Assembly (NCBI GenBank): GCA_029931535.1
Contig: JAQPZY010001684.1
Coordinates: 744,001-808,000 of the forward strand
Direction of reading: 5' to 3'
DNA from: Margaritifera margaritifera
Taxonomy: Eukaryota; Mollusca; Bivalvia; Unionida; Margaritiferidae
DNA length: 64,000 nucleotides
Part shown: positions 11,601 to 64,000 of the stretch, one piece after another
How positions within the stretch are numbered: the stretch's first letter is position 1
How the letters are laid out: every line of letters starts with the position of its first letter
Translations under genes and position numbers: made by a program
The notes under the pieces: generated by a model
What the model was told of the DNA's origin: nothing
Seen by the model: the letters and a program-made list of their open reading frames with translations, nothing else
The model's database searches: none

Positions 11601-11639
11601 CTGAATGCTTGATGTTATGCAATAAATGAGCAAGCAAGC

Positions 11640-12251: not shown

Positions 12252-13346
12252 GCACAAATTAAAGTGAATTTACAGTTCAAGCTTTATACTAACTCACAAA
12301 CCAAAATGAATTTACAGTTCATGATTTATACTAAATCACAAATCAAAGTTAACTACAGTCCATGATTTATACTAACTCACAAATCAAAGTGAAGTTATAG
12401 TCCATGATTTATACTAACTCACAAATCAAAGTGAATTTACAGTCTGTGCTTTATACTACATTCCATGCTTTATACTAACTCACAAAATAAAGTGAATTTA
12501 CAGTCCATGCATTATACTTTGGTCCATGCTTTATACTAACTCAGAAATTAAAGTGAATGTACAGTCAATGCATTATACTACAGTCCAGACTTTATACTAA
12601 CTCACAAATCAAAGTGAATTTACAGTCCATGCTTTATACTAACTCACCAATCAAAGTGAATTTACAGTCCATGCATTATCCTACAGTCAATGCTTTATAC
12701 TAACAAATTAAAGTTAATTTACAGTACATGCATACTACAGTCCATGCTTTATACTAACTCACCAATCAAAGTGAATTTACAGTCCATGCATTATACTACG
12801 GTACTTTATAGTAAGTCACAAATTAAAGTGAATTTACAGTCCATGCATTATACTACAGTCCAAACTTTATACTAACTCACAAATCAAAGTGAATTTACAG
12901 TCTGTGCTATATACTAACTCACAAATCAAAGTGCATTTACAGTCCATGATTTATACTAACTCACAAATCAAAGTGCATTTGCTGTCTGTGCATTATACTA
13001 CAGTCCATGCTTTATAGTAACTCACAAATTAAAGTGAATTTACAGTCCATACATTATGCTAAAATCCATACTTTATACTAATTCATAAATCAATGTGAAT
13101 TTATAGTCCATGCTTTATACTAACTCACAAATCAAAGTGAATTTATAGTCCAAGCTTTATTCTAACTCAGAAATCAAAGTGAATTTACAGTCTGTGCTTT
13201 ATACTATCTCACAAATCAAAGTGAATTTACAGTCCATGCATTATACCACAGTCCATGCTTTATAGTAACTCACAAATTAAAGTGAATTTACAGTCTATGC
13301 TTTATACTAACTCACAAATTAAAGTGAATGTACAGCCCATGCTTTT
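12252..13346 (+). repeat. satellite A, left arm (42-bp unit with longer variants)
   Basis: The basic unit is AAAGTGAATTTACAGTCCAT followed by GCTTTATACTAACTCACAAATC (42 bp). Longer units add an extra CAGTCCATGCATTATACTA-like segment of about 20 bp, giving a mixed higher-order pattern. The same satellite, reverse-complemented, fills 61,965-64,000. It lies in a GLE1 intron in both copies. Open frames across it are repeat artefacts. Confidence 0.95.
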
Positions 13347-15085
13347 TTGGTTACTCACAGATTCTATCTAAATTCCTTTTTGAAATCTGCAATGTATGAT
13401 GCCATATAGCGTGTATGTTTAATGGAGGAGAGATTTTTGTGATCTAGCAGTGTAAGAGTGAGATCATGGAAATAAATCCTGTCAAAGTTAGTATTTTATA
13501 GATCATAACCTCCCTAGATCCACAATGGTTAAAATATGAATAGCCAAAATTTAAAACTCACATTTTTGGACACAATTTATATAAATCTTACATCTGAAAA
13601 GAATTCCACTGTGAGATATGTACTTGTGGGAATAGGATGGCCATACTTCCCATAATAGCTATGGATTGGTTCATTTAATCTTTACTGGGTAGGAAGTAAT
13701 TTTTCCTGCATTTGATTGCAGAACTTGATTAGAGTTCAGTTAATTTTGTCTGAATATAATACTGAGAACACTACTAGGATCATAAAATGATGCCAATTTT
13801 CCAATGTACCTTTGAGTGTCATTATGTTAGTTTCTGTTCAGCACACAAAAAAAGTTTTTATGATGAAATGTTAGTAAAAAGATTTTAAAAATTGTGATTT
13901 TGCCTATGGGTCAGTGTACTGTTTCCTTGGAGCATACACTTTTGGCATGAGAAAATGGAGGGGTGAGGTGGGGTAGTGGATGTTCTTTACCCTGTTAAAC
14001 AACCCGAAAGTTACGTTTGTGGGGAAATAAACTTAACACTAGCAGAGCTTCACTCCATGAAATAAAAAGTCAAAGCATCAAGGGTAGATAAAAAGTAATG
14101 CTTCTGACTAAATTCCACCATACAAAGTGGGGAAAATCTTGTCATAGCTATTGACTAAGCCACCCCATATAAAGGAGGAAGAGGTGTGGAATGCTTCATA
14201 AGATGTACTTATTTGTGATATGGATGTTTCTTGAAAGTTTACAGGATTTCATTTAATGGAAATTTGTAAGAATATTTTCAGGTTTCAGAAAAATACTTTT
14301 CTCAATTTAAAAAAAAATAGTATGCAAAGATCTGTTTTATCCCCCCCCCCCCACTAGCTGCTGTCTCTCCACAAGTCTGTACTTCTGTCCCGAATCTATT
14401 TTAGCATAATAGCACAAAATCTATTGATCTTAGAAATATGAAATTTTACACACTTTATCATGGTCATGAGTAGACAACCTAATTAGAATTTCAGGCCGTT
14501 AGACATGTTTTAATTTTTCACACATTGATGCACCATTTGGAATTGGACTTTTTTTGGCAAAATCCTTCTTGGAATGATTAAGCAAAACCACTTGAGGTAC
14601 ACAAATGAAATTTGGTAGTCATATTTGTATTTATATTTAGATGACCTGATAAGATCTTAAGCGCATTGCCCCAATTTGTCAGCTATTTGCATATTTTTTA
14701 AAAAACTTATTGGACATTTAGACATTTTTGACAAAAATCTTGTTGGTACAAGTGAGCATAGACCACTTGTGGTAGACAAATGAGATTTGATAGGCATTTT
14801 TGTATTCATATGTGGTGAATTAAAAAACAACACATTTTGAAACATTTTTAAATTATTTTTTTTAACAAAAATTTTGCAAGCACAATTGAAGAGAATCATA
14901 TGAGGTAGACAAATAAAATTTGGTACGCATATGTATCGGTAGATGACCTGATTAGATTTTTATGCCATTTTAGCAGTTTCTTTCACTTTTCGACAGTTTT
15001 GAATTTGATGAGACTAGGATTTTTTGGTCTGTCGAGTCTGCAGTGTGGCATATATGCTTTATAAACACAAATCCTGTTTTTGTTT
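13347..15085 (+). other. left-arm-only segment with diverged tandem repeat
   Basis: In the right arm the satellite directly abuts the exon at 61,875-61,933, whereas here about 1.7 kb separates satellite from exon. From about 14,380 it contains diverged units marked by ACCACTTGAGGTACACAAATG, CACTTGTGGTAGACAAATG and CATATGAGGTAGACAAATA, each followed by AAATTTGGTA-like sequence. The same family, inverted, is at 28,950-29,420. A poly-C run sits at 14,341-14,352. It is either an insertion on the left or a deletion on the right. Confidence 0.7.
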
Positions 15086-15100
15086 ATCTAACACCAAGAG

Positions 15101-15159
15101 GCAAAGGCGCAGGAGGCAGAAAAGACAAAACAGAGACTGAGGGCTGAAGCTAAACGAAG
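15101..15159 (+). CDS. GLE1: GLE1 left copy, third coiled-coil exon
   Basis: Acceptor CACCAAGAG and donor GTAATG enclose 59 nt reading AKAQEAEKTKQRLRAEAKR plus two bases. The right-arm counterpart at 61,875-61,933 differs by A-to-V and R-to-Q changes. Charged helical composition continues the Gle1 coiled coil. Confidence 0.8.
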
Positions 15160-17700
15160 GTAATGAGGTTTTATAATTTACTTTTATTATTTGTTTGTAT
15201 GGTTTTTTGTTTTATTAAATTCATCAGACAGAAAAATGATCTCATTCTCTTATTATTGCCTGCACAGCGGTGTCTTGCAGATATTTAATGCTAAAAATGT
15301 TTTAAAAAGTGATCCACTGCATTCACAGTGAAAATTTAAATGAAACTTGAGCAGGGCTGAAGAACTAGGGCAGCTCACAGGAAAATTGATCTTGCCTATG
15401 GGTAACTTGAGCTTGCTTTGAGTACATCCTTGATCGTTTACTTGAACTTGCTTTTAATTCGCTGAATCATCACCTGCTGATCAATGGTCACTTAAAAGCA
15501 AGGTATAGTGATTTAGCAAAATGGTGTCACCCATTGATGAGTACATTGCACAGTGTCCTTGCCCAAATAAAAAGGGCCAGAACAGTTTTAGAAGACAGTT
15601 ACAGGTTAATATAATCTTTTTTGTGTAAATGTTGTATAACCCTAAAGCATAATGTAAATATGTATTCTGATTGTAGTGCAGTCCGCTACCATGTTCAAGA
15701 TCACAGTCTCAGTTAGTTGGGATATTTTTAACTATGGTTAGCATTTATCCATGCTTTGAAATATATAAACCAGGTTTTGATACTGAAATAATCAATACTC
15801 AAAAGCTGTAAGTATTTTTGGGGGGTCAATTTTTGTTCTCATGATCTTATCATTTTAAAAAAATTCACTAGTTATAAATGATGAATTACAGCATGAACTT
15901 GTGTTCGTTTTAATATTTAAATATTTTATATCCATCCGATTTGGTTTTAGTTAATATTTGTATGATATTGTTACATGTGTCTATAACAGTTCAACAGTTA
16001 ATTTGCAAACCATAAACAGTTAAAATTGAGCATTTAAACTGTACACAAATATGTTAAAAAAATTTTTAAACATTTTTCATCGGCATAAAGTAAATTCATA
16101 AATATTATCTTTCATTTAATTTTTATTTTTGGGGTGTTTTAAATAATATTTACTTTCCATTTAAACTGTAAAAAAATATTATTTTCCATTTTTTTTCACT
16201 GAAAATGTAAAAAGACTTGGGTCAACGTAAACAGTTTACTCAAAGAACAATTTTACAAAATATGGTAGATACAGTTAGTTTTTCTGAGAAAAATCCTAAA
16301 TGGGGTATCATTTCAGCTTTTGGAATACTTATTAATAATCACCAATATCAGTCAATTCAGTATAGTCGTTGTCTTAAGTATTTATTTTTTTAATAAGAAC
16401 TGGTTAAAAGAAAATTTCTACTTTAGCAAACACATCTTAGGCCAAAACAAAAAATGTGAGTTTCTGGTCGGCCGACCGTACATGTTTCTCATTGCCGACC
16501 CTAGTACTCAACCCCCCCCCCCCAAAAAAAAAAAAAAAAAAAATAATAAAAAGAAAACAAATCCCATTGCCGAAATTGATTTGTGCATCTAATTGAGCTT
16601 GTTTTGCCCAGTACTTTGAAGCGCTTGAAATACCGTTTAATTTATATATAATGATTAAACAAAAAAAACAAACAAAAAATTCCTGCCTACCCTAATTTTA
16701 AAACCAGTGCAATAGGAAAAACACATTTGGGGGGGGGGCCTTACATGTATATGGTAAATCAGATATAAGAAAGTAAATAAGTCATTAATTACACCAGTAA
16801 ATTATTAGTGGCAGGAAAACAGATAATTAATCTGTCCTGCAGATAATCAACTAATCCCATTTTTTATCATTTGACTGCTAAATTTAAATTGTTCATGTCT
16901 TTTGGGTTTTGTTGATTTTCTGAATAAAGAATACAATGAATTTATTTAGTAAAACACAAAGAAAATTGCATTTAATTCACAATTACACATTCTGTATTAA
17001 ATGTATAGAGAACAATTGATTATCAGATTATCAGTAGGAGTCATACAGTCATATAAATGTCATTGCCATTAACTAATGTGTCCTAAACTTTTTTGTGTTG
17101 TCCTAAATTTCATACAAGCTTCGAAACAATTATCCTGGACACAGTCTAAACTATCCAAACACTACGTATTAAATTTGTGTGACTGACCTATGACCCTTTT
17201 TCACAGTATGCACACTAAATTGTTTATTTTACAAATGCTAATTATATGTACTTTTTATTGATCTATTACTTTGATCTTTATATTATAATTTTCTTTCCAG
17301 TAAATCAGTTATTGTCAACAAAAATCCAAGTATTGCTATTGTTACAAACTGATATTTTCAAATTTAGGAAGATAAAGAAAAAATGCAAACATTAAATTGT
17401 TGGATCAGATACTGCAGCCCATCATAATGTTCAACAATAATCTCTCACACCCAGTCAGCTTCTGGATTTCCATCTTGTTAATTCCATCATGCATTTTTTT
17501 CAGCAGATACATATAGCCAAAAATTTTCATTCTCTGTGTGGCTGCTTAAGGGGGTTGCACTGTAGTTACATTTTATGCATATCGGCAATGAGCAAACCAA
17601 TCAGATTTTATGTTTAAAATATTATGCATTAACTGCATATGTAAATCATTTGCATGTATTTAGGCTAAGACATGTATAGTTATAAACAGAGACCAGTCTA
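15160..17700. other. GLE1 intron (left copy), no gene
   Basis: Mirrors 59,395-61,874 of the right arm. It contains low-complexity C and A runs near 16,510-16,543, and a G run near 16,729. No exon, RNA gene or transposon was recognised. Confidence 0.6.
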
Positions 17701-18257
17701 TGAAATACCGTATTTACCCATGTATAACATTCACCCAACTGAAAACAACAGAATCAGACCAGGTATTTTAAAAACTTTTTAAGCACTAAACTTTAACTTG
17801 AGCTTTAAACCCTGAACTTTGATATGATGTTTTGAGTGAAATTATGCATTCATGTAAAGTGACCAAAGTTAAGAAAATTTGGAACATTCTTTGATTCTTA
17901 CATTATTTTAATCAAAACTACAGACTGACAAAATGTTCAGATTTTGAGCTTGAACCTCAGTTTTGTGCTTAAAAGGTTTTGAGAATATGGGGCCAGGCCT
18001 TGAGATTATAAAACTATAATCTCCAGGCCCTGTATTCTCAAAACGTTTGAGAATGAAACTCAAGCTGAAGCTGAAAACCCCACAATGAGATATGATGCTT
18101 AGAGTATAACTATGTTATGGAAATCTGACAGTCTAATAGAGGGACCCAAGTTAAGAAAAGTCTGAAAGTTCCCAGATTCTAGCTTTACAGTTCAAGATAT
18201 AGACTGTCAAAGTTTTGTCACTTTGAGCTTGAGTTTCTTGCTCAAAAAGTTTTCATA
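17701..18257. repeat. dispersed repeat with internal palindromes, left arm
   Basis: Begins near ACCGTATTTACCCATGTATAA and alternates segments such as TTGAGCTTGAACCTC, TTCTCAAAACGTTTGAGAA and CTCAAGCTGAAGCTGAAAA, in both orientations. At 18,013-18,035 GGAGATTATAG/TTTTATAATCTC-like halves abut, where the right arm (about 58,945-59,085) has an extra 130 bp. Confidence 0.6.
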
Positions 18258-18405
18258 ATGTGGTGCAAGATGTATCTACGCATAATGTGCCAGCAGATCC
18301 AAGTCTATGCTTTTTGTCCAAATCATCATGTAAAGTGAGCAGTGCAGATCATAATCTTCTAGTGTATCAGGTGACTGCAGAGCTAGGTCTGTCTGCAGTT
18401 GGGAG
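18258..18405. mobile_element. foldback element, degenerate copy next to a GLE1 acceptor (left arm)
   Basis: Contains ACGCATAATGTGCCAGCAG, CCAAGTCTATGC, and later AGCTAGGTCTGTCTGCAGT. These match the half-sites of the foldback family at 6,255 and 39,139. It ends about 30 bp upstream of the splice acceptor at 18,436. The mirror copy is at 58,563-58,710. Confidence 0.55.
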
Positions 18406-18436
18406 CACCTTTTGCAAACATAATCAAATGTTTAAG

Positions 18437-18723
18437 AGAGGAAGAACTACAACTGCACTTAGAGTCAATCCAAAAATCTCACAGCGATTTGACAGCATTA
18501 GATGCCTCAGTTCAGTCAATGACATCTAGCTTCAAATACCAGCAACATCTGTCAGAAGCTGCCAAAAAGTCCATCAATCTCATCCATACACTCACAGAAA
18601 ATTGTGAGAAGACTGTGCAGCATTGCAAACAAACAAGGGCAGTGACTCCAGAGAATCACCAGAAAATAAAGGAGATAATGGAGAGGGCACAAAATGCATA
18701 TGAATTTTGGAAAGAGGGATTTG
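18437..18723 (+). CDS. GLE1: GLE1 left copy, main helical exon
   Basis: A 287-nt exon completes the Arg codon carried from 15,159, then reads EEELQLHLESIQKSHSDLTA and continues open to the GTAAGT donor at 18,724. The right copy uses TTTCAG as acceptor. Here the same site reads TTTAAG, a weaker but still AG-containing acceptor. Within the exon the two copies differ at roughly five residues (for example AS/TK and EIM/GII). It encodes long amphipathic helices with no stop. Confidence 0.85.
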
Positions 18724-19158
18724 GTAAGTATATTTTCAGCAGAGAATATACTTTTATGCTGCGCCATGATAGTGATAGGGACATATAGTGTTACTGTTGT
18801 CCATTCATCAGTCCATCTATCCATCCATCCATCACACCTTCATTAGGTTTTGTATTTATATCACTTTTTCAGGCACTGTAGTTAGGCATTTGTATTCCAT
18901 AAACACTTTCAAGATGTGCAAGAAATGTTAAAATAGATGAGATAAGGCAGTCACATTGTCTCTCCAGTCATTGGCCTGTTTGACTTTTTGACTTTAATTT
19001 GTTCTATATTAAATAGCCTTATTGCCTATATGCACTTTGTACAGTGTTACCAGGCTTTGCATATAGATTCACAGAACTCGTAGGTTAGGATCTTTAAGGT
19101 GGAGGGAAATCAAAGGTAAGACTATTTTTATTTCTACAGGTTAACTTCAATTACAGCT

Positions 19159-19162
<4 letters not shown>

Positions 19163-19241
<79 letters not shown>
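19163..19241 (+). repeat. (TA)n microsatellite, left arm
   Basis: Uninterrupted TA run. The mirror tract is at 57,709-57,805, where a transposon fragment has inserted beside it. Confidence 0.97.
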
Positions 19242-19244
<3 letters not shown>

Positions 19245-20090
19245 TTATACTCTGTTGTAATTAGTGTATATAGATAGTGTTTCATTAGTAATTATGCTTC
19301 AAGCAGTAGAATTTTAGTGTCTTGTTGTTCATTTGGATTAAACATGCATGGATAAAATGAGATGTGCTTTCAGGAAGATTTAAATTTTTAACAACACTTG
19401 CACTTGAATGAAGGATCGATTTCAATAAGTAATAAATCTAATTTTCATATATTAGTATCATTTAATATTCTTTCTTTCATTTTTTCAGTAATGCTAGTGT
19501 TTGAATACCTTATGCTTTTTTTCATTTCTCTCAATCCTTACTTATCTCACAACATATGGATTTAAGGTAGTGAGTGGAAATTAAGCAACCAAATACTATA
19601 TAGATACGTGTGCTTTGAAACAATATAAAATGCTTTATAATTCCTCTTTTAGAGGGTTAAGAAGAAGGAAAAAAACACGTGTAAAAGCTAATGTTTATTA
19701 CCAGATTACAGTAATGAGGTTGATCTATCAAACAGCTTTGTTGAACTCTAGAAATGAATCACAGTAAGAAAATGGCGAGGTGTGTGTGGTTTCTTCATTA
19801 TATGTGGCTAATTTTTTATTGAGTCTTTGTGGTTCAGGGCAACAATAAAATTCACACAAATTTCTTAAATGCATCAAAAAGAAAACATTACAGCCACAAT
19901 ATCTGAGTGCCGAATTTGTTAAAATGTTTTGAATTGCTCTAATTCAATTCTGTTGAATTTATTATCATAAAACTCATCATCAACAAAGGACTCAAAAGTT
20001 TCTACATTATTGTGGTCAATTGGTCAGTCGTTGAGGGTAAAAAAGTCACAATATAGATGGGACAAGAAACTTTGATTTATATATGCCTGC
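19242..20090. other. GLE1 intron (left copy), no gene
   Basis: Mirrors 55,985-56,828 in the right arm closely. No exon or known repeat was recognised. Confidence 0.6.
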
Positions 20091-20940
20091 CATAAAGTGG
20101 AGCCCATTGTGATATTGTCAGTTCATATATCTGTCTGTTCCCTATTTGATTTCTGCACAATATCTCGAGTTCTCCACAAACTACCATTACCAAACGTTGT
20201 AAGTAAATTGCATTTGGGGCAAGGAAGAAACATATTGATTTTGAGTGCAAAAGGTCAAAGGTCAAAATCGCAGGGACTGAAAGTAGGAAAACTGTTTCCA
20301 CACAAGAGCTTGACCTGACCAAACTTTGTAAATGGTTTGCATTTGAGATATAAAAAAGACACCTGTTCCAAAGGTCAATCTCACGGTGACTCTAAGAAAC
20401 CATGGTTTCAGCATGATATCTTGAGTTTGTTATCACCAACTTTGACCAAACTTTGTGGATAGCTTGCATTTGAAACAAGGACTACACCTATTCATTTTGG
20501 GGTCAAAATGTCAAAGGTCAAGGTCACAGGAACTGAAAGAAGGAAAACCAATTTCTGCAAAACTGCTTCGGTTCTGAACCACATGCCTTGACTAAACTTT
20601 GTGGATATTTTGCTTTTGTGTTGAATGGTCAAAGGTCTAGGTAAGAGGGACTCAAAGAAGAAAAATGGTTTTAACAAAATAATTTGAGTCGTATGCCACA
20701 AACCATGACAAAACTTTCTGGATGGCTGGTATTTGCAACAGGAAAGGCATCTGTTGATTTTGGGGTCAGTAGGTCAAAAGTCGAAGTCAGAGAGACTAAA
20801 AGAATTTTTTTCTGCAAAAAATGCTGGTCATGGCAGGCATATAATGTACTGTTTATGGTACTCTTTTTAATATGCCTACACTTAAATGCAGTTATCTTTG
20901 CATGCTTCCCTTATACCCTCATTAGATAAAATGACTTTTT
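20091..20940 (+). repeat. diverged tandem repeat with GACC/GGTC core, left arm
   Basis: Units of about 120-140 bp combine phrases such as AAGGTCAAGGTCACAGG, GACTGAAAGAAGGAAAAC, CATGACCAAACTTTGT and GGCTTGCATTTG. I recognise this pattern as a repeat type common in bivalve DNA, though no named family was confirmed. The mirror block is 55,148-55,985, and a spacer block of the same family is at 43,400-44,540. Confidence 0.75.
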
Positions 20941-20989
20941 GATGCCTTTGACGCTAATCACAAAGGAACATTAAAATCTGACAGAGATT

Positions 20990-21740
20990 TGTTCATTTAT
21001 AAGGAGTTGACAGATGATCAACATGTTTATCCCAAGAGGAAGTAAACTTTATTTCCGCAGCATAACTTTATCAAGGATTTGTTGGATTTTGATCAAATTT
21101 GGTTTGCAGTTTTATATCAATTAGATCACAGATTAGTAGGATTACAGTCATTCTGCTTCATGATTTGGTGGAGTTATGGCCCTTGATGACCCATCTGTTC
21201 TTAACATTGTTTTCTGGCATAACTTTATCAAGCAGTATGGGATTTCTACCTTGTTTTGTATGGAATGTTCTATTAATCCGATCTATAGTAAATTTGATTG
21301 TCAGCATCCTGCATCAGAAATTAGTGTATTTATGGACCCTGATGGTTTTTCCTTTTAAACTTAAGTTTCAGCAGCATAACTTTACCTAGGATAATTAGAC
21401 TCTTTCCAGAATTAGTAAGCAGTTTTATAATGCCAAGATCTCCAATGAGATTGCTTGTCAGCATTGGGTTTAATAAGGGGAGATATTGCCCCTTGACTAC
21501 CTTCGCCTTCAAACTTGTGTTTCTGTAGCAAAACAATACCAGGGGTCATTAAATTTAAAGCCATTTTTTTCAGTTCTACATTAATAAACTCTTGCATGGG
21601 GTTGATAGTAAGCAAATATCATTTTTTGAAGTTTTGGCCCCCGATTCCAGGATACATCCACTTTTTATTTCCAAACACATGCTCTGTTTAAGGACCTGCT
21701 TGACACATGTTAGTGAGTGGGCCCTTTGTGATGCATCCAT
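20990..21740 (+). repeat. diverged tandem repeat ('AAATTTGGTTGAAATCC' type), left arm
   Basis: Units carry AACTTTATCAAGGATTTGTTG, GATCAAATTTGGTTTGCAG and CATAACTTTACC-like phrases separated by about 130 bp. Same family as 41,040-42,270; mirror at 54,320-55,030. Reading frames here are identical or nearly so between arms without looking like a gene. Confidence 0.7.
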
Positions 21741-22533
21741 GACTAATAGCTAGAGTTCATTTTGCTTATAACGCATTTCTATTTATAATTGATGCATTTT
21801 ATTTTTCCCAATAGCTCCTAATTGATATCTATACGTCTTTGATAACCAGCAATATGTTCACATTCACTGGTTTGAGATCTTTCACTTTTGGCCATCTGTT
21901 CTTTCAAATATTGGAATTTCACATGCCACTTTAACACATTTGTTTTACACATGCTAATCTAAGGTCATGTCACATGAGTAGCTGAATGAATATGTTAACA
22001 ATATAAGGTTTAGTTGCATGTATAGTGAATTCATGAGATCAATATACTGGTGATAAATGTGAAGTGCATCTACTTTGACATTAGGGTTGTTGAAGTTAAG
22101 CATACGCTGAATGCTCTTACCTGCAGTGTGTCACTGTCTAATGAGTTGTATGATTTTTGAGCTGAGCTCTGAATCTGCTTTCCCAATAGATGTGCAGTAG
22201 CTCTTATTCAAAACTAGAAGAAAACCATTAGCACTATTGATGTTTGTATATACAAGGTGATTCATAGCTCCAGGGAGTATCCAGGCATATCAACATTGCA
22301 AGACAGATCTTTGTTTGAAGGGTTGGATTTAAATGTTTATTGATAAGATGATTGAATATGTAAGAATAATTGCAAAATTCACCCAGTGTTTGCTGAAACA
22401 TTTTGGGAATGAACTTGAATCCTTGGGCTTCACCTTCAGGTTCCAAATCTTTCAATATGTTAGGCCAAATGTTGGAACTTCACAATTTGTGTATTATCAC
22501 TATAATGTTATTATTTTTACAATGTTTTTGCAG

Positions 22534-30735: not shown

Positions 30736-30737
30736 CC

Positions 30738-35981: not shown

Positions 35982-36024
35982 ATGAGAGACACCAATACAT
36001 GCACTTTGTTACACATTCAAAATG

Positions 36025-54400: not shown

Positions 54401-57400
54401 TTTGGAAATAAAAAGTGGGTGTATCCTGGAATCGGGGGCCAAAACTTCAAAAAATGATATTTGCTTGCTATCAACCCCATGCAAGAGTTTATTAATGTAG
54501 AACTGAAAAAAAAATGGCTTTAAATTTAATGACCCCTGGTATTGTTTTGCTACAGAAACACAAGTTTGAAGGCGAAGGTAGTCAAGGGCCATATCTCCCC
54601 TTATTAAACCGAATGCTGACAAGCAATCTCATGGGGGATCTTGGCATTATAAAACTGCTTACTAATTCTGGAAAGAGTCTAATAATCCTTGGTAAAGTTA
54701 TGCTGCTGAAACTTAAGTTTAAAAGGAAAAACCATCAGGGTCCATAAATACACTAATTTCTGATGCAGGATGCTGACAATCAAATTTACTATAGATTGGA
54801 TTAATAGAACATTCCATACAAAACAAGGTAGAAATCCCATACTGCTTGATAAAGTTATGCCAGAAAACAATGTTAAGAACAGATGGGTCATCAAGGGCCA
54901 TAACTCCACCAAATCATGAAGCAGAATGACTGTAATCCTACTAATCTGTGATCTAATTGATATAAAACTGCAAACCAAATTTGATCAAAATCCAACAAAT
55001 CCTTGATAAAGTTATGCTGCGGAAATAAAGTTTACTTCCTCTTGGGATAAACATGTTGATCATCTGTCAACTCCTTATAAATGAACAAATCTCTGTCAGA
55101 TTTTAATGTTCCTTTGTGATTAGTGTCAAAGGCATCAAAAAGTCATTTTATCTAATGAGGGTATAAGGGAAGCATGCAAAGATAACTGCATTTAAGTGTA
55201 GGCATATTAAAAAGAGTACCATAAACAGTACATTATATGCCTGCCATGACCAGCATTTTTTGCAGAAAAAAATTCTTTTAGTCTCTCTGACTTCGACTTT
55301 TGACCTACTGACCCCAAAATCAACAGATGCCTTTCCTGTTGCAAATACCAGCCATCCAGAAAGTTTTGTCATGGTTTGTGGCATACGACTCAAATTATTT
55401 TGTTAAAACCATTTTTCTTCTTTGAGTCCCTCTTACCTAGACCTTTGACCATTCAACACAAAAGCAAAATATCCACAAAGTTTAGTCAAGGCATGTGGTT
55501 CAGAACCGAAGCAGTTTTGCAGAAATTGGTTTTCCTTCTTTCAGTTCCTGTGACCTTGACCTTTGACATTTTGACCCCAAAATGAATAGGTGTAGTCCTT
55601 GTTTCAAATGCAAGCTATCCACAAAGTTTGGTCAAAGTTGGTGATAACAAACTCAAGATATCATGCTGAAACCATGGTTTCTTAGAGTCACCGTGAGATT
55701 GACCTTTGGAACAGGTGTCTTTTTTATATCTCAAATGCAAACCATTTACAAAGTTTGGTCAGGTCAAGCTATTGTGTGGAAACAGTTTTCCTACTTTCAG
55801 TCCCTGCGATTTTGACCTTTGACCTTTTTGTACCCAAAATGAATATGTTTCTTCCTTGCCCCAAATGCAATTTACTTACAAAGTTTGGTAATGGTAGTTT
55901 GTGGAGAACTTGAGATATTGTGCAGAAATCAAATAGGGAACAGACAGATATATGAACTGACAATATCACAATAGGCTCCACTTTATGGCAGGCATATACA
56001 AATCAAAGTTTCTTGTCTCATCTATAGTGTCACTTTTTACCCTCAATGACTGACCAATTGACCACAATAATGTAGAAACTTTTGAGTCCTTTGTTGATGT
56101 AGAGTCATGTGATAATAAATCCAACAGAATATAATTAGAGCAATTCAAAGCATTTTAATAAATTCAGCACTCAGATACTGTGGCTGTAATGTTTTCTTTT
56201 TGACGGAATTAAGAAATTGTTGTGAATTTTGTTGTTGTCCTGAACCACAAATTTAAAGACTTAATAAAAAATTAGCCACATATAATGAAGAAACCACACA
56301 CACCCCACTATTTTCTTACTATGTTTCATTCCTAGAGTTCAACAAAGCTATTTGATAGATCAACCTCGTTACTGTAATCTGGTTATAAAACATTAGCTTT
56401 TACATGTGTGTGGTTTTTTTTAACCCTCTGAAAAAGGAATTATAAAGCATTTTATATTGTTTCAATGCACACGTATCTATACAGTATTTGGTTGCTGCAT
56501 AATTTCCACTCACTGCCTTAAATTGATATGTTGTGAGGTAAGTATGGACAGAGAAAAATGAGAAAAAGCATAAGGTATTCAAACACCAGCATTACTGAAA
56601 ATGAAAGAAAGAATAATAAATTATACTAATATATGAAAATTAGATTTATTACTTATTCAAATTGATCCTTCATTCAAGTGCAACTGTTAAAAATTTAAAT
56701 CTTCCTGAAAGCACATCTCATTTTATCCATGCATGTTTAATCCAAATGAACAAGAAGACTCTAAAATACTACTGCTTGAAACATAATTACTAATGAAACA
56801 CTATCTATATACACTAATTACAACAGAGGATCCATTCAGCATGATCGGCTTGATTAATGAGGTTGCAAGGTCCACTAATACTTTACACTGATCATCACCA
56901 GTGACATCTTCCTTTTCCCTGATGGTCTCCATAACTTTCTTCTGCATACCAGTTGCGGAAGTGTGATTTTAATTCTACTTTGCAGACTTTATTTATTGTC
57001 AAGTTTAGTGGTTGAAGTCAGTTTGTACATAAGGGAGGCACAAACAAACGAGTGTATACATTGTCTTTGAATTTAGTTAGCATCTTTGCACTTTGATGGG
57101 CTCTAAAGACATCAAATATTGCCACTGCCTGCTGATTGCACTGAGCAAGGGGCAGCTGGTCATGTTTTTGGTTCACATATGGAATGATGACATTATCCAC
57201 ATAACAAATCATAGATTCTTCATTACTCCAGTGTGAATCTGTTTGAGTCACATCCCAATAGTGAGGGAAAACTACACCCTTAGGCAGGCATCTGCTACTC
57301 TTCCCTGTGTAAATGAGCTGTTGCAGCAGAAGAGTACCATATTTTCTTACAGCGAGTAAAATTGTAATTTGTGTCTTGTGATCAAGTTTAGAAATCAACA

Positions 57401-57711
57401 CTTGTTTACATCCACAGACAGTGGTTTAAAGAGATCATACAGATGTGCTGTAATAACTGATTGGCTTAGTGTTGTTGGCTGCCTTGGCTTCCATTGATGC
57501 TGACTCAAACAAAAATATGGTTTAAGTGACTGATCTTTAAGGGTGTTTGATTTGTGCTCCTATAGATGGTAGTACTGTTTTAGTGTTGTTGGATGCATTG
57601 GCTTCCACTGTTCCACTGATGTTATGCACTTGGACCTTTTTTTTTTTTTTTTTTACAAAACCATAAAAATTTAGACCCATGATAATAAATGATACTACAG
57701 TGTATGTACAT

Positions 57712-57809
<98 letters not shown>

Positions 57810-60800
57810 AGCTGTAATTGAAGTTAACCTGTAGAAATAAAAATAGTCTTACCTTTGATTTCCCTCCACCTTAAAGATCCTAACCTACGAGTTCTGTGAA
57901 TCTATATGCAAAGCCTGGTAACACTGTACAAAGTGCATATAGGCAATAAGGCTATTTAATATAGAACAAATTAAAGTCAAAAAGTCAAACAATCCAATGA
58001 CTGGAGAGACAATGTGACTGCCTTATCTCATCTATTTTAACCTTTCTTGCACATCTTGAAAATGTTTATGGAATACAAATGCCTAACTACAGTGCCTGAA
58101 AAAGTGATATAAATACAAAACCTAATGAAGGTGTGATGGATGGATGGATAGATGGACTGATGAATGGACAACAGTAACACTATATGTTCCTACCACTATC
58201 ATGGTGCAGCATAAAAGTATACTCTTGGCTGAAAATATACTTACCAAATCCCTCTTTCCAAAATTCATATGCATTTTGTGCCCTCTCTATTATCCCCTTT
58301 ATTTTCTGGTGATTCTCTGGAGTCACTGCCCTTGTTTGTTTGCAATGCTGCACAGTCTTCTCACAATTTTCTGTGAGTGTATGGATGAGATTGATGGACT
58401 TTTTGGCAGCTTCTGACAGATGTTGCTGGTATTTGAAGCTAGATGTCATTGTCTGAACTTTGGTATCTAATGCTGTCAAATCGCTGTGAGATTTTTGGAT
58501 TGACTCTAAGTGCAGTTGTAGTTCTTCCTCCCTGAAACATTTGATTATGTTTGCAAAAGGTGCTCCCAACTGCAGACAGACCCAGCTCTGCAGTCACATA
58601 ATACACTAGAAGATTATGATCTGCACTCCTCACTTTACATGATGATTTGGACAAAAAGCGTAGACTTTGATCTGCTGGTACATTATGCAAAGGTACATCT
58701 TGCACCACATTATGAAAACTTTTTGAGCAAGAAACTCAGGATCAAAGTGCCAAAACTACAGGAGTCTATTTTGAACTGGAGTAAAGCTAGAATCTGGGAA
58801 CTTTCAGACTTTTCTTAACTTGGGTCCCTCTATTAGACTGCCAGATTTCCATAACATGGCTATACTCTAAGCATCATATCTCATTTTGGGATTTTCAGCT
58901 TCAGCTTGAGTTTCATTCTCAAAAGTTTTGAGAATACAGGGTCTGGAGATCATAAAGCACCTGAATTTAAGCTTGAGATTTTGTTTCAACCAATCATAAA
59001 TAAAATTACTTTTGAATGTTGGTTTCTTACTTGCTGACAGTGAAAACTCAATCTCGAACTCAAGATCAAAGTTTTATAATCTCCAGGCCTGGCCCTATAT
59101 TCTCAAAACCTTTTAAGCACAAAACTGAAGTTCAAGCTCAAAATCTGAACATTCTGACAATCTGTAATTTTGATTAAAATAATGTAAAAATCAAAGAACG
59201 TTCCAAATTTTCTTAACATTGGTCACTCTACATGAATGCATAATTTCACTCAAAACATCATATCAAAGTTTGGGGTTTAAAGCTCAAGTTAAAGTTTAGT
59301 GCTCAAAAAGTTTTTAAAATACCTGGTCTGATTCTGTTGTTTTCAGTTGGGTGAATGTTATACATGGGTAAATATGGTATTTCATAGACTGGTCTATGTT
59401 TATAACTATACATGTCTTAGCCTAAATACATGCAAATGATTTACATATGCAGTTAATGCAGAATATTTTAAACATAAAATCTGATTGGTTTGCACATTGC
59501 CGATATGCATAAAATGTAACCACAGTGCAACCCCTTAAGCAGCCACACAGAGAATGGAAAATTTTGGCTATAAAAAATGCATTGATGGAATTAACAAGAT
59601 GGAAATCCAGAAGCTGGCTGGGTGTGAGAGATTATTGTTGAACATTATGATAGGTTGCAGTATCTGATCCAACAATTTATTTTTGCATTTCTTCTTAATC
59701 TTCCTAAATTTGAAAATATCAGTTTGTAACAATAGCAATACTTGGATTTTTGTTGACAATAACTGATTTACTGGAAAGAAAATTATAATATAAAGATCAA
59801 AGTAATAGATCAATAAAAAGTACATATAATTAGCATTTGTAAAATAAACAATTTAGTGTGCATACTGTGAAAAAAGGGTCATAGGTCAGTCACACAAATT
59901 TAATATGTAGTGTTTGGATAGTTTAGACTGTGTCCAGGATAACTGTTTCGAAGATTGTATGAAATTTAGGACAATACAGAAAATTTAGGACACATTAGTC
60001 AACGACCATGGCATTTATATGACTGTATGACTCCTACTGATAATCTGATAATCAACTGTTCTTTATACATTTAATACAGAATGTGTAATTGTGAATTAAA
60101 TACAATTTTCTTTGTATTTTACCTAAATAAATTCATTGTATTCTTTATTCAGAAAATCAACAAAACCCAAAAGTAAGGAACAATTTAATTTTAGCAGTGA
60201 AATGATAAAATATGGGATTAGCTGATTATCTGCTGGACAGATTAATTATCTGTTTTCCTGCCACTAATAATTTACTGGTGTAATAATGACTTATTTACTT
60301 TCTTATTTACTTTCTTACATGTGATTTACCATATATATGTAAGTCAAAAAATAATAATATGTGTTTCCTATTGCACTGGTTTTAAAATTAGGGTAGGCAC
60401 GAATTTTTTTTTTTTTAAACATTATATATAAATCAATATTTCAAGCACTTCAAAGTACTGGGCAAAACAAGCTCAATTAGATGCACAAATCAATTTCGGC
60501 AATGTGATTTTTTGTCTTTTTTGGAGGTGGGGGGTAGTGCTAGGGTCGGCAATGAGAAACAGGTACAGTCCGCCAACCGGAAACACTGATATTTTTTTTT
60601 GGGCCTAAGATGTATTTGTTTCAGTAGAAATTTTCTTTTAACCAGTTCTTATTAAAAAAATAAATACTTAAGACAACGACTATACTGAATTGACTGATAT
60701 TGGTGATTATTGATAAGTATTCCAAAAGCTGAAATGATACCCCTTTTAGGAAAGCTAACTGTATCTGCCATATTTTGTAAAAATTGTTGTTTGAGTAAAA

Positions 60801-61933
60801 TGTTTATGCTGACCCAAGACTCTTTACTTTTTCAGTGAAAAAAATGGAAAATAATATTTTTTAAAAGTTTAAATGGAAAGTAAATATTATTTAAAACACC
60901 CCAAAAATAAAAATTAAATGAAAGATAATATTTATGAATTTACTTTATGCTGATGAAAGATGTTCCCAGAAAATTTTAACATATTTGTGTACAGTTTAAA
61001 TGCTCAATTTTAACTGTTTATGGTTTGCAAAATAACTGTTCAACTGTTGTAGACACATGTAACAATATCATACAAATATTAACTAAAACCACGTCAGATG
61101 GATATAGAATATTTAAATATTATTAAAACGAACACAAGTTCATGCTGTAATTCATCATTTATAACTAGTGAATTTTTTAAAAATGATAAGATCATGAGAT
61201 CAAAATTGACCCCCCAAAAATACTTACAGCTTTTGAGTATTGATTATTTCAGTATCAAAACCTGATTTATATATTTCAAAGCATGGATAAATGCTAACCA
61301 TAGTTAAAAATATCCCAACTAACTGAGACTGTGATCTTGAACATCATAGCAGACTGCACTACAATCAGAATACATATTTACATTATGCTTTAGGGTTATA
61401 CAACATTTACACAAAAAAGATTATATTAACCTGTAACTGTCTTCTAAAACTGTTCTGGCCCTTTTTATTTGGGCAAGGACACTGTGCAATGTACTCATCA
61501 ATGGGTGACACCATTTTGCTAAAACACTATACCTTGCTTTTAAGTGACCATTGATCAGCAGGTGATGATTCAGTGAATCAAAAGCAAGTTTATGTAAACA
61601 ATCAAGGATGTACTCAAAGCAAGCTCAAATCACACATGGGCAAGATCAATTTTCCTGTGAGCTACCCTGGTTCTTCAGCCCTGCTCAAGTTTCATTTAAA
61701 TTTTCACTGTGAATGCAGTGGATCACTTTTTAAAACATTTTTAGCATTAAATATCTGCAAGACACTGCTGTGCAGGCAATAATAAGAGAATGAGATCACT
61801 TTTCTGTCTGATGAATTTAATGAAAAAAAACCCATAAAAACAAATAATAAAAGTAAATTATAAAACCTCATTACCTTTGTTTAGCTTCAGCCCTCAGTCT
61901 CTGTTTTGTCTTTTCTGCCTCCTGCACCTTTGC
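36025..61933 (-). CDS. GLE1: GLE1, mRNA-export factor (5' end beyond window)
   Basis: Nine exons join on the minus strand: 61,933-61,875, 58,531-58,245, 53,540-53,464, 50,715-50,592, 49,930-49,838, 49,470-49,364, 42,984-42,775, 39,137-38,947 and 36,475-36,025. They total 1,599 nt, every phase fits and there is no internal stop, giving 532 residues plus stop. Residues 1-115 are coiled coil, 116-182 an Ala/Ser-rich linker and about 250-532 the Gle1 C-terminal domain. Key matches to the animal family are DFQKAVNIPI, the LLSGQPV loop, KKGEEQV, KYLKRMSGIMRLYAA, DVTATMIFDLL and the PSSFWTS terminus. In known species GLE1 sits at the cytoplasmic face of the nuclear pore. With inositol hexakisphosphate it activates DDX19/Dbp5 to release proteins from exported mRNA. 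Only the N-terminal part is missing from view. This copy looks functional. Confidence 0.93.
36548..36640 (+). mobile_element. possible MITE terminus
   Basis: CTCCCCGTTATAACATGC followed by TATAATGCTATTCCAGATA resembles the sequence at 3,972 and pogo-like ends. It lies in the GLE1 intron just upstream of the last exon. No partner end was confirmed. Confidence 0.3.
36980..37132. mobile_element. long hairpin (inverted repeat, about 61-bp arms)
   Basis: The arm 36,980-37,040 (ACCAAAGACCAACTTATTGT ... GATCACAG) is complementary to 37,071-37,132 with roughly a fifth of positions mismatched, around a 30-base loop. It resembles a MITE. If transcribed as part of the GLE1 intron it would fold into a long stem. 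Confidence 0.75.
37529..37850 (+). repeat. 27-bp minisatellite, about 12 units
   Basis: Units of GATATTCAGTACTGGATCAA CATTGAT. Because 27 is divisible by three, open frames run along it (repeating DIQYWINID in one frame), interrupted by a small deletion in the third unit. One frame continues about 40 codons into unique sequence to 37,977. It lies in a GLE1 intron on the opposite strand, and I do not take it as a gene. Confidence 0.92.
37978..38946. other. GLE1 intron, no other feature
   Basis: AT-rich intron sequence between the last two GLE1 exons; nothing else recognised. Confidence 0.55.
38947..39137 (-). CDS. GLE1: GLE1 exon, Gle1 domain middle
   Basis: Acceptor GATATTTCAG and donor GTAAGT enclose 191 nt. 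It reads KKGEEQVSSKHDTAFAIAMV, TVGLWSEHPDLGELLLGHFY and ends SSQEYF plus two bases. It aligns with the [20 protein letters not shown] block of the human protein. Confidence 0.92.
39139..39280. mobile_element. foldback element abutting the GLE1 splice acceptor
   Basis: The terminus GAAATATCATATTTACCCAT with ATATAACACACAC matches the family end at 17,704 (GAAATACCGTATTTACCCAT). Inside is the hairpin ACAGCCTAGACCCTGATCTG ... GATGGCAGATCTGGGTCTATGC, and the far end reads GTTGGGCGTGTGTTACACCC. Its near end lies within a few bases of the acceptor of the exon at 39,137. Confidence 0.75.
39285..40135 (+). repeat. diverged tandem repeat ('AATGGCAATAACTCTAACA' type)
   Basis: About six units of 130-150 bp combining AAGCTACAAGACAAAAATGG, AATATGCACATCTTCAGGTG and AAGTTTCATGGCAATCC phrases. 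GLE1 intron. Confidence 0.8.
40180..40960 (+). repeat. diverged tandem repeat ('GGCCATATTGGATGTAAGAT' type)
   Basis: About five units with GGCACCATTTTCATTTAGGA, AAAATCCCATGTCAATATGA and AGCAATAACAAGATTTTAAA. Related to 23,040-23,400 and 52,660-53,040 in the arms. Confidence 0.8.
41040..42270 (+). repeat. diverged tandem repeat ('AATTTGGTTGAAATCCAACA' type)
   Basis: About eight units of 130-150 bp with GTAAAGTAATGCTGCAGAAA, TGATAATGTGGAATGCTGGA and CAAGGTCTTATCAATATAAA. Same family as 20,990-21,740 and 54,320-55,030. Confidence 0.8.
42463..42655 (+). repeat. 57-bp minisatellite, about 3.4 units
   Basis: Units of GATCATTGCCCAATATATGC TGCTCAGGGCATGTAACTGG TTGGGCCATAAACA, ending about 120 bp from the exon at 42,775. 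Confidence 0.9.
42775..42984 (-). CDS. GLE1: GLE1 exon, start of the Gle1 domain
   Basis: Acceptor GTTCATTTCAG and donor GTGGTT enclose 210 nt (70 codons, phase 0 at both ends). It reads SKKLKFDFQKAVNIPINAIS and then LLRLTSLLSGQPVEVGNKRI, ending NLIARMI. It matches the human [20 protein letters not shown] and LLSGKPV blocks. Confidence 0.92.
43400..44540 (+). repeat. diverged tandem repeat with GACCTTTGACC core
   Basis: About nine units of 120-140 bp with phrases GTGACCTTGACCTTTGA, CCAAAATCAACAGGCTTCTT, CCCCAAGTGCAAGCCATC and ACAAAGTTTGGTCCAGG. Same family, mostly inverted, as 20,091-20,940. Confidence 0.85.
44806..44978 (+). repeat. 42-bp minisatellite, four units
   Basis: Units of CCAAACCAAAATAGAGTACT AATTGCAAAATATGCATTAT CTA. 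Confidence 0.9.
44979..45850. other. GLE1 intron, nothing recognised
   Basis: AT-rich intron sequence; the frame at 45,598-45,858 has no recognisable protein features. Confidence 0.5.
45954..46032. mobile_element. short hairpin element
   Basis: TAGTTGTCACGTGCAGTCAA at the left edge pairs with TTGACTGCACATGACAACTA at the right edge, extending into flanking bases for about 30 bp, around a loop of about 17 bases. A partial duplicate of the flank (ATATACCTTACCTGTTAGTT) lies just upstream. Confidence 0.75.
46033..48163. other. GLE1 intron, nothing recognised
   Basis: AT-rich intron sequence running to the inner edge of the right arm. No gene or clear repeat. Confidence 0.55.
48999..49170 (+). 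repeat. 57-bp tandem triplication, right arm only
   Basis: CAGCAATCTAGACATACTGG begins at 48,999, 49,056 and 49,113. The left arm has a single copy (about 26,888-26,945), so this expanded after, or was lost since, the duplication. Confidence 0.93.
49364..49470 (-). CDS. GLE1: GLE1 exon before the Gle1 domain
   Basis: TGTTTCAG acceptor and GTAAGA donor; reads VELPCVDIRTFLEYTRLEEK and on to SLSATPQ, ending in phase 0 for the exon at 42,984. Left copy at 26,590. Confidence 0.9.
49838..49930 (-). CDS. GLE1: GLE1 short exon
   Basis: AAATACAG acceptor and GTAAGT donor enclose 93 nt reading VKMTIHDHNEVLNKIKLRVC then EEEHAFVQVYK. The left copy of this exon is split by an insertion. Confidence 0.88.
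50592..50715 (-). CDS. GLE1: GLE1 Ser/Ala linker exon
   Basis: Acceptor TTAACACAG and donor GTTTGT enclose 124 nt reading VPTGFPLASSTPIVVASQSS, then QSGASYGVVTSTAAAAAGTE. Intact frame, unlike the left copy. Confidence 0.88.
50980..52188 (-). repeat. satellite B, right arm (29-bp unit, about 42 copies)
   Basis: Complement of the left array, with units like GTATGAGGATTTAAGGATGC TAATGTTGT. A few units are irregular or compressed, for example near 51,617 and 51,742. Confidence 0.95.
52660..53040 (-). repeat. diverged tandem repeat, mirror of 23,040-23,400
   Basis: Same phrases reverse-complemented (GGTGGCCATATTGAATGTC, AGGAGGAGTAGTAACAAG). One substitution adds a stop in the otherwise shared chance frame. 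Confidence 0.7.
53464..53540 (-). CDS. GLE1: GLE1 Ala/Lys linker exon
   Basis: TTTTTGCAG acceptor, 77 nt reading (E)AANKAGQKADADAAAAAAEA and AKKAK, then a non-consensus GTCATT donor. It has two more Ala codons than the left copy. Confidence 0.82.
54320..55985 (-). repeat. dispersed repeat blocks, mirror of 20,091-21,740
   Basis: The two diverged tandem families seen at 20,091-20,940 and 20,990-21,740, in reverse order. The core 55,148-55,585 is almost identical to its left partner. Confidence 0.8.
56829..57700 (-). mobile_element. pogo/Tigger-type transposase fragment, right arm only
   Basis: On the minus strand, 57,018-57,401 reads DHKTQITILLAVRKYGTLLL, QLIYTGKS, LPKGVVFPHYWDVTQTDSHW and AVAIFDVFRAHQSAKML. 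That is the DDE_1 endonuclease core of Tigger-like transposases, including the conserved FDVF.AH block. The N-terminal DNA-binding domain and first catalytic block are missing. The left arm at 19,241-19,262 shows an uninterrupted junction (TATACTCTGTTGTAATTAG), so the segment was inserted on the right or removed from the left. A poly-T run lies at about 57,637-57,654. Confidence 0.85.
57709..57805 (+). repeat. (TA)n microsatellite, right arm
   Basis: TA run with one interruption, mirror of 19,163-19,241 and longer. Confidence 0.97.
58245..58531 (-). CDS. GLE1: GLE1 main helical exon
   Basis: Acceptor ATGTTTCAG and donor GTAAGT enclose 287 nt reading (R)EEELQLHLESIQKSHSDL, SSFKYQQHLSEAAKKSINLI, and ending AYEFWKEGF plus one base. 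Long helices consistent with the Gle1 coiled-coil region. Confidence 0.9.
58563..59340. repeat. foldback remnant and palindromic dispersed repeat, right arm
   Basis: Mirror of 17,701-18,405. Relative to the left it holds about 130 extra bases around 58,950-59,080, bounded by GGAGATCATAAAG and TTTTATAATCTCC. Confidence 0.65.
59395..61874. other. GLE1 intron, nothing recognised
   Basis: Mirror of 15,160-17,700, AT-rich, with low-complexity T and G runs near 60,400 and 60,520. No other gene. Confidence 0.6.
61875..61933 (-). CDS. GLE1: GLE1 coiled-coil exon (first exon in window)
   Basis: CACCAAGAG-type acceptor (here TAGCACCAAGAG) and GTAATG donor enclose 59 nt reading AKVQEAEKTKQRLRAEAKQ plus two bases. 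Upstream exons lie beyond the satellite and the window edge. Confidence 0.85.
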
Positions 61934-61964
61934 CTCTTGGTGCTAGATAAACAAAAAGATAACT

Positions 61965-64000
61965 AGACTGTAAATGCACTTTGATTTGTGAGTTAGTATA
62001 AAGCACAGACTGTAAATTCACTTTGATTTATGAGTTAGTATAAAGCATGGATTGTAGTATAATGCACAGATTGTAAATTCACTTTGATTTGTGAGTTAGT
62101 ATAAAGCATGGATTGTAGTATAATGCACAGACTGTAAATTCACTTTGATTTGTGAGTTAGTATAAAGCATGGATTGTAGTATAATGCACAGACTGTAAAT
62201 TCATTTTGATTTGTGAGTTAGTATAAAGCATGGATTGTAGTATAATGTTTGGACTGTAAATCACTTTCATTTGTGAGTTAGTATAAAGTATGGACTGTAG
62301 TATAATGCATGGTCTGTAAATTCACTTTGATTTGTGATTTAGTATAAAGTATGGACTACAGTATGCATGGACTGTAAATTCATTTTAATTTGTGAGTTAG
62401 AGTCAAGCACGAACTGTAGTCTAATGCATGGACTGTAAATTCACTTTGATTTGTGAGTTAGTATAAAGCATGGACTGTAATTAACTTTGATTTGTGAGTT
62501 GATATAAAGCATGGACTGTAGTATAATGCACAGACTGTAAATTCACTTTGATTTGGCTGTTAATATAAAGCACAGACTGTAAATGCACTTTTATTTGTGA
62601 GTTAGTATAAAGCATGGACTGTAAATTCACTTTAATTTGTGAGTTAGTATAAAGCATGGACTGTAGTATAAAGCATGGACTGTAAATTCACTTTAATTTG
62701 TGAGTTACTATAAAGCATGAACTGTAGTATAATGTATGGACTCTAAATTCACTTTGATTTGTATTTTAGTATAAAGCATGGACTGTAGTATAATGCACAG
62801 ACTGTAAATTCACTTTGATTTGTGAACTAGTATAAAGCATGTACTGTGAATGCACTTTGATTTGTGAGTTAGTATAAAGCAAAGACTGTAAATTCACTTT
62901 GATTTGTGAGTTAGTATAAAGCATGGATTGTAAAATAAAGCACAGACTGTAAATTCACTTTGATTTATGAGTTAGTATAAAGCATGGATTGTAGTATAAT
63001 GCACAGATTGTAAATTCACTTTGATTTATGAGTTAGTATAAAGCATAGACTATAAATTCACTTTGATTTGTGATTTAGTATAAAGCATGGACTGTAGTAT
63101 AATGTATGGACTGTAGTATAATGCATGGTCTGTAAATTCATTTTAATTTGTGAGTTAGAGTCAAGCACGAACTGTAATCTAATGCATGGACTGTAAATTC
63201 ACTTTGATTTGTGAGTTAGTATAAAGCACGGACTGTAAATTCACTTTGATTGTGAGTTAGTATAAAGCACAGACTGTAATTCACTTTAATTTGTGAGTTA
63301 GTATAAAGCATGGACTGTAGTATAATGCACAGACTGTAAATTCACTTTGACTTGTGTTAATATAAAGCACAGACTGTAAATGCACTTTTATTTGTGAGTT
63401 AGTATAAAGCATGGACTGTAAATTCACTTTAATTTGTGACTTACTATAAAGTACCATAGTATAATGCATGTACTGTAAATTCACTTTGATTGGTGAGTTA
63501 GTATAAAGCATGGACTGTAGTATGCATGTACTGTAAATTAACTTTAATTTGTTAGTATAAAGCATTGACTATAGGATAATGCACGGACTGTAAATTCACT
63601 TTGATTGGTGAGTTAGTATAAAGCATGGACTGTAAATTCACTTTGATTTGTGAGTTAGTATAAAGCCTGGACTGTAGTATAATGCATTGACTATACATTC
63701 ACTTTAATTTCTGAGTTAGTATAAAGCATGGACTAAAGTATAATGCATGGACTGTAAAGTCACTTTATTTTGTGAGTTAGTATAAAGCATGGAATGTAGT
63801 ATAAAGCACAGACTGTTAATTCACTTTGTTTGGTGAGTTAGTATAAAGCATGGACTATAAATTCACTTTGATTTGTGAGTTAGTATAAATCATGGACTGC
63901 AATTCACTTTGATTTGTGAGTTAGTATAAAGCATGGACTGTAAATTCACTTTAATTTGTGAGTTACTATAAAGCATGGACTGTAGTATCATGCAGGGACT
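61965..64000 (-). repeat. satellite A, right arm (runs off the window)
   Basis: Reverse complement of the 12,252-13,346 array: units of GACTGTAAATTCACTTTGAT TTGTGAGTTAGTATAAAGCA plus a longer variant with GTAGTATAATGCA. At least 2 kb here against 1.1 kb on the left. Confidence 0.95.

What the first reader, a model, noticed from the sequence alone, without database searches (positions are those of the whole stretch)
12252..64000. Large imperfect inverted duplication of the middle of GLE1
Six GLE1 exons, two satellites, a (TA)n tract and several dispersed repeats appear twice in mirror order around a 20.4-kb spacer. Only one side continues into the Gle1 C-terminal domain. Arms of 15 kb or more within a gene of essential function are unusual.
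Basis: seen in the sequence. Interest (0 to 1): 0.8.

Follow-up and report, generated by a model that had tools for sequence, protein, structure and literature searches.

The report
Inverted pseudogene copy beside GLE1
In what is probably the freshwater pearl mussel genome, the front half of the essential mRNA-export gene GLE1 has a broken mirror-image copy about 20 kilobases away, which seems to have exchanged sequence with the working gene and could flip and break it.

Summary
The mirror repeat is real and larger than reported. Seen beyond the window, its arms are about 62 kb (window -34,087..27,792) and 57 kb (48,160..~105,494) around a 20,367-bp spacer. It is not the middle of GLE1. Both arms hold the whole 5' half: upstream region, start codon and exons 1-10 (residues 1-400). 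The spacer holds the only exons 11-13 (C-terminal domain) in the 220 kb examined, continuous with the right arm. The right copy is a clean 13-exon, 684-residue gene. The left copy is a 5' pseudogene: two frameshifting deletions, lost exon-3 donor, lost exon-6 acceptor, damaged exon-9 donor. Divergence is a mosaic: about 5.5% background, blocks near 2%, and a 973-bp tract with a single difference, which points to repeated gene conversion. The best-fitting assembly, Margaritifera margaritifera V2, has a published heterozygosity of 0.163%, and the arms end in largely unrelated flanks, so a haplotype misjoin is unlikely, though untested with reads. Best reading: an old inverted partial duplication that landed beside, and probably truncated, a second YdjC-type deacetylase gene. 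It works like human IDS/IDS2, a gene with a partial pseudogene prone to disabling inversion. New member of a known kind, moderately interesting.

The parts
1..27792 (+). Left arm (part inside the window; the arm continues left to about -34,087): 5' GLE1 pseudogene, exons 4-10 of the ten copied exons
   Evidence: inverted match to 48,160-~105,494; lesions
7490..7638 (+). left copy exon 4 (psi)
9006..9062 (+). left copy exon 5 (psi), 4-bp frameshifting deletion
15092..15159 (+). left copy exon 6 (psi), acceptor AG>AA
18437..18723 (+). left copy exon 7 (psi)
22534..22604 (+). left copy exon 8 (psi), 6-bp in-frame deletion
24983..25093 (+). left copy exon 9 (psi), 13-bp frameshifting deletion, donor GT>GG
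26590..26696 (+). left copy exon 10 (psi)
20307..21279 (.). presumed recent gene-conversion tract in the left arm (1 difference in 973 bp; mirror about 54,798-55,770)
392..15903 (.). low-divergence block (2.2%) between arms, read as older gene conversion (satellite part left out of the count)
20122..27756 (.). low-divergence block (1.8%) between arms
27792..27793 (.). inner breakpoint of the left arm; no transposon edge recognised by eye
27793..48159 (.). spacer, 20,367 bp, not duplicated within the 220 kb compared
28377..28657 (+). relic of the last exon of a second YdjC-type carbohydrate deacetylase gene, frameshifted; its exons 1-4 were not found
36025..36475 (-). GLE1 exon 13 (with stop)
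38947..39137 (-). GLE1 exon 12
42772..42984 (-). GLE1 exon 11 (start of C-terminal domain)
48160..64000 (-). Right arm (part inside the window; the arm continues to about 105,494): working GLE1 exons 10 to 6
49364..49470 (-). GLE1 exon 10
50592..50715 (-). GLE1 exon 9
53464..53540 (-). GLE1 exon 8
58245..58531 (-). GLE1 exon 7
61875..61942 (-). GLE1 exon 6 (exons 5-1 lie at 67,402..100,113, outside the window)

Best explanation
An old, real inverted segmental duplication copied the 5' half of GLE1 (about 5 kb upstream through part of intron 10, roughly 60 kb) and placed it in inverted orientation about 20 kb away, beyond the gene's 3' end, where only the last exon of a second YdjC-type deacetylase gene now remains. 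The right copy stayed joined to exons 11-13 and is the working gene. The left copy lacks them and has decayed into a pseudogene. The arms have since exchanged sequence by gene conversion, most recently over about 1 kb in intron 7. Shown: the structure in the assembly, the gene model, the lesions, the mosaic divergence. Inferred: that gene conversion made the mosaic; that the deacetylase truncation came with the insertion; and that arm-arm crossover would invert the spacer and, if inward of exon 3, put dead exons in front of the C-terminal domain and disable GLE1.
For: Arms and edges. Ten exon pairs and a clean right-hand gene (13 exons, GT-AG introns, 684 residues, no internal stop); GLE1 Pfam domain E 2.5e-76 at residues 384-633; solved GLE1 C-terminal domain chains (6b4f and others) match 396-684. 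Left lesions. pN/pS between copies 0.75 (30 non, 11 syn; not different from 1, P 0.44). At 27 amino-acid differences 25 relatives side with the right copy at 17, the left at 6, tied or neither at 4; F119, P88 and I3 are held by 25, 23 and 22 of 25 and changed on the left. Mosaic of 5.4-5.7% and 1.8-2.6%, one segment only in 40 of 40 shuffles; 1 difference in 20,307-21,279 against 32 substitutions in 19,821-20,306. A 1,750-bp element with terminal inverted repeats and a TA target duplication is in the right arm only, with an empty site on the left. Deacetylase gene and relic.
Against: No reads were available, so the joins at 27,792 and 48,160 rest on the assembly. The species is inferred. A genome-wide count of GLE1 did not complete. 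Six of 27 amino-acid differences favour the left residue as ancestral. Low-divergence blocks could partly be two duplication steps of different age, or, for the 973-bp tract, a polishing error. The relic deacetylase exon could be an older partial duplicate rather than a casualty of the insertion. Weak matches near -41 kb/112 kb are roughly collinear with the arms, so an older, outer extension of homology is not excluded.
Confidence: 0.85

Rival explanations
1. Assembly artefact: two haplotypes of one GLE1 locus were joined head to head, so the arms are alleles.
For: Arms share exon order and alignable introns; the best-fitting assembly was made from PacBio CLR reads (PMC10189783 passages).
Against: Published heterozygosity of the best-fitting assembly is 0.163%, the arms differ by 3.9% overall and about 5.5% outside low blocks. 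Strong homology stops at about -34,087 and 105,494: 26 kb to the left compared with 54 kb to the right leave only weaker matches, the best-scoring 69-74% alike over about 1 kb. No second exons 11-13 lie beside the left arm. One side alone carries five or six lesions.
Confidence: 0.07
2. Real paralogues, wrongly placed: the left arm is a true duplicate but lies elsewhere and was misjoined here.
For: The left arm's outer end lies in a satellite (unit about 18 bp, read), a place where joins can fail.
Against: Both ends would need false joins; no repeat was recognised at the inner edge; deacetylase pieces flank the left arm on both sides in one orientation, which fits one locus.
Confidence: 0.05
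3. Inversion with staggered breaks: the 20-kb spacer was inverted and the arms are the filled-in staggered ends, so the spacer's present orientation is derived.
For: Same final geometry; the mechanism is recalled from Drosophila inversion literature, no call.
Against: Staggers of 60 kb would be far longer than the cases I recall; the deacetylase relic lies in the orientation expected for a tandem copy of the gene to its left, which favours no spacer inversion.
Confidence: 0.1
4. Both arms are alternative working 5' halves sharing one C-terminal cassette that flips.
For: Both arms contain upstream sequence, start codon and exons 1-10.
Against: Left copy has frameshifts and broken splice sites.
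Confidence: 0.02

Closest known systems
Human IDS and its pseudogene IDS2/IDSP1 (Hunter syndrome inversions)
   Same: A gene with a nearby partial pseudogene; non-allelic recombination gives inversions and hybrid alleles (passages of PMC9405548; variant-table passages of PMC11610362). The inverted layout at about 20 kb is recalled, not seen.
   Different: Here about 60 kb and the whole 5' half (10 of 13 exons) are copied, in a mollusc, in GLE1; no inversion has been observed.
[quoted passage not shown]
   Same: Inverted repeats around a spacer; recurrent inversion and conversion are discussed there (passages of PMC3961182).
   Different: Only one orientation is known here; most exchanges would be predicted to be harmful.
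Fold-back inverted duplications with a single-copy spacer
   Same: Inverted copy separated by a non-duplicated spacer, 766-70,466 bp in 21 sequenced human junctions (passages of PMC3907307).
   Different: Those are patients' rearrangements with terminal deletions, translocations or rings; this one is interstitial and old; no ancestral junction is available for a microhomology test.

Membership tests
Inverted segmental duplication (>=1 kb, >=90% identity) | long inverted copies at >=90% identity, beyond transposon content | tested here: met
   45,237 aligned positions, 3.9% different, satellites and a few short pieces left out; contains ten GLE1 exon pairs
Inverted segmental duplication (>=1 kb, >=90% identity) | two physical loci, not alleles | tested here: inconclusive
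   divergence, one-sided lesions and differing flanks favour two loci; read depth not available
Non-processed (duplicated) pseudogene | retains introns of the parent | tested here: met
   all ten exons in order with aligned intron sequence
Non-processed (duplicated) pseudogene | disabling lesions and missing part | tested here: met
   two frameshifts, broken splice sites, exons 11-13 absent beside it
GLE1 (mRNA export factor) | GLE1 C-terminal domain PF07817 and match to bivalve GLE1 along its length | tested here: met
IDS/IDS2-like inversion-prone gene-pseudogene pair | inverted partial pseudogene nearby | tested here: met
IDS/IDS2-like inversion-prone gene-pseudogene pair | sequence exchange between the copies | tested here: inconclusive
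   mosaic divergence with sharp edges supports it; no outgroup or reads to exclude staged duplication or polishing error
IDS/IDS2-like inversion-prone gene-pseudogene pair | inversions observed in individuals | not testable with these tools
   needs population long reads

The most novel reading that the evidence does not exclude
The arms recombine often enough that inverted spacers and hybrid GLE1 alleles segregate in wild mussels: exchanges upstream of exon 3 give working hybrids, exchanges further in give recessive lethal alleles, so the locus is a standing source of load at an essential gene in an endangered animal.
Probability: 0.2. Interest if true: 0.65.

Novelty: new member of a known kind. 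Interest (0 to 1): 0.4.

Why it matters
It is a natural case, probably in a long-lived freshwater mussel, of an essential gene facing its own broken mirror copy at close range, with layered blocks of divergence that look like successive conversion tracts. It predicts recurrent disabling inversions that could be checked by long reads. It is also a practical warning: automatic annotation may report a second, partial GLE1, and short reads could mis-map between the arms.

Tried and rejected
Rejected: 'middle of GLE1' (exon 1 with its start codon is in both arms); 'arms of 15 kb'; a switchable shared C-terminal cassette (left copy dead); extension of the arms beyond -34,087/105,494 by weak, roughly collinear matches near -41 kb/112 kb (69-74%, with shifted copies, read as a dispersed repeat; its genome-wide search did not complete, so this is not proven).

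Only two genome searches were answered. Literature searches for GLE1 with pseudogene or bivalve, and for inverted duplications in bivalves or molluscs (the best 10, 6 and 6 of 74, 348 and 57 papers listed) showed no description of this locus in their listings.

Full report
What was checked. The window is G000:C281:744,001-808,000 of an assembly of 2,453,371,941 bases in 1,696 contigs. Coordinates below are window coordinates; negative values and values above 64,000 lie in flanks I fetched. A self-BLAST confirms the inverted repeat with inner edges 27,792 and 48,160. With 60 kb more on the left and 96 kb more on the right, the chain of inverted matches continues to about -34,087 on the left and 105,494 on the right, where both arms run into a satellite with a unit of about 18 bp. 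Beyond that, 26 kb on the left and 54 kb on the right share only weaker matches (60 rows were printed); the best-scoring are 69-74% alike near -41 kb and 112 kb, roughly collinear with the arms and present in shifted copies. I read them as a dispersed repeat, but an older outer extension is not excluded. The finding's outer limit was the window's end.

What the gene is. Bivalve GLE1 proteins (Ruditapes, Mercenaria and others) map exon by exon. The right-hand gene on the minus strand has 13 exons from 100,113 to 36,025, all introns GT-AG, and encodes 684 residues without an internal stop. PF07817 covers residues 384-633 and solved GLE1 C-terminal domain chains match 396-684. Exons 1-10 (residues 1-400) lie in the right arm and exons 11-13 (401-684) in the spacer, so the duplication ends almost exactly where the C-terminal domain begins. 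No transcript was available; the model rests on homology and splice sites.

The left copy. Exons 1-10 are all present on the plus strand, from -29,030 to 26,696. They carry an exon-2 donor GT>GC, exon-3 donor GT>AT, a 4-bp deletion in exon 5, exon-6 acceptor AG>AA, a 6-bp in-frame deletion in exon 8, a 13-bp deletion in exon 9 and exon-9 donor GT>GG. Exon 2 also has three single-base gaps, net in frame. Between the copies 30 non-synonymous and 11 synonymous differences give pN/pS 0.75, not different from 1 (P 0.44). At 27 amino-acid differences, 25 relatives (12 named as bivalves by their source, 13 unnamed) favour the right residue at 17, the left at 6, and are tied or match neither at 4. No exons 11-13 lie beside the left copy. 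It is a non-processed 5' pseudogene.

Not alleles, most likely. The assembly's size and contig number fit Margaritifera margaritifera V2 (2.45 Gb, 1,700 contigs; passages of PMC10189783) better than Unio delphinus (2.51 Gb, 1,254) or U. pictorum (2.43 Gb, 670) (passages). The nearest named relative of a neighbouring gene is from the unionid Potamilus streckersoni. No barcode was matched, so the species is inferred. That paper gives heterozygosity of about 0.163%. The arms differ at 1,767 of 45,237 aligned positions (3.9%; satellites and a few short matches were left out). The arms also carry unshared insertions, for example a 1,750-bp element in the right arm with terminal inverted repeats and a TA target duplication, against an empty left site. 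One 601-bp arm probe found just two close full-length places in the genome (100% and 98%); its other 55 matches are partial, the longer ones at 78% or less, among 40 scored candidates of 6,497. Read depth could not be examined, and the genome-wide count of GLE1 did not complete.

The arms talk to each other. Divergence is not uniform. An optimal segmentation in 50-position bins gives 2.6% at -33.3 to -30.1 kb, 5.4% from there to 0.4 kb, 2.2% to 15.9 kb, 5.6-5.7% to about 20.1-20.3 kb and about 1.8-2.1% to the inner edge, with a 0.1% piece at 20.3-21.3 kb under the lowest of three penalties. In 40 of 40 shuffles a single segment was found. Between 20,307 and 21,279 there is one difference in 973 bp, against 32 substitutions in the 486 bp before it and nine in the 378 bp after it. 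Sharp edges and non-coding content argue for gene conversion rather than constraint. The youngest tract has a divergence like that between two alleles, so it would be recent. Polishing error or staged duplication are possible but weaker alternatives. There are 14 exactly identical runs of 200 bp or more, the longest 646 bp.

What it predicts. A crossover between the arms inverts everything between the exchange points. The C-terminal exons then keep right-arm exons inward of the exchange and gain left-arm exons outward of it. Any exchange inward of exon 3 (left coordinate above about -20,609) would import the broken exon-3 donor. Thirteen of the 14 long identical runs lie there and one, at -30,818, lies upstream of exon 1 (positions, exons). 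This is inference from the anatomy.

How it arose. Left of the left arm is an apparently complete YdjC-type carbohydrate deacetylase gene in five exon matches (plus strand, -49,945 to -37,406; splice sites not checked). Right of it, 585 bp inside the spacer, is the frameshifted last exon of a second one (28,377-28,657) whose other exons are missing and were not found elsewhere in the genome (six matches, all on this contig). The simplest history is two tandem deacetylase genes facing GLE1 tail to tail, into the second of which an inverted copy of GLE1's 5' half was inserted with loss of sequence. A replication-based template switch would do this, but no transposon was recognised at the junction and the ancestral sequence is lacking, so the mechanism is a guess. 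Fold-back duplications in humans show the same non-duplicated spacer (passages of PMC3907307).

Verdict. Real with high probability, mostly of a known kind. The human IDS/IDS2 pair is the closest working analogue (passages). The interest lies in the size of the copied part, the essential gene and the readable record of apparent conversion.

Noticed in passing
-49,945..-37,406 (C281:694,055-706,594) and 28,377-28,657: An apparently complete YdjC-type carbohydrate deacetylase gene and a frameshifted last exon of a second copy on either side of the left arm.
   Followed up: yes
31,089-31,622: Two head-to-tail 265-bp units 99% alike in the spacer, a recent-looking tandem duplication.
   Followed up: no
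37,524-37,850: A 27-bp unit repeated 12 times in the GLE1 intron before exon 13, open in several frames.
   Followed up: no
23,875-24,719 and 50,980-52,182: The 29-bp satellite in intron 8 differs in length between the arms (29 against 41 copies), so its copy number has changed since the duplication.
   Followed up: no
right arm, about 85,670-87,419: A 1,750-bp element with terminal inverted repeats and TA target duplication, absent from the left arm.
   Followed up: partly
right arm, 78,377-79,495: Reverse-transcriptase-like reading frame of a retroelement in GLE1 intron 3 (PF00078, E 5e-9 for the 319-residue piece scanned).
   Followed up: no
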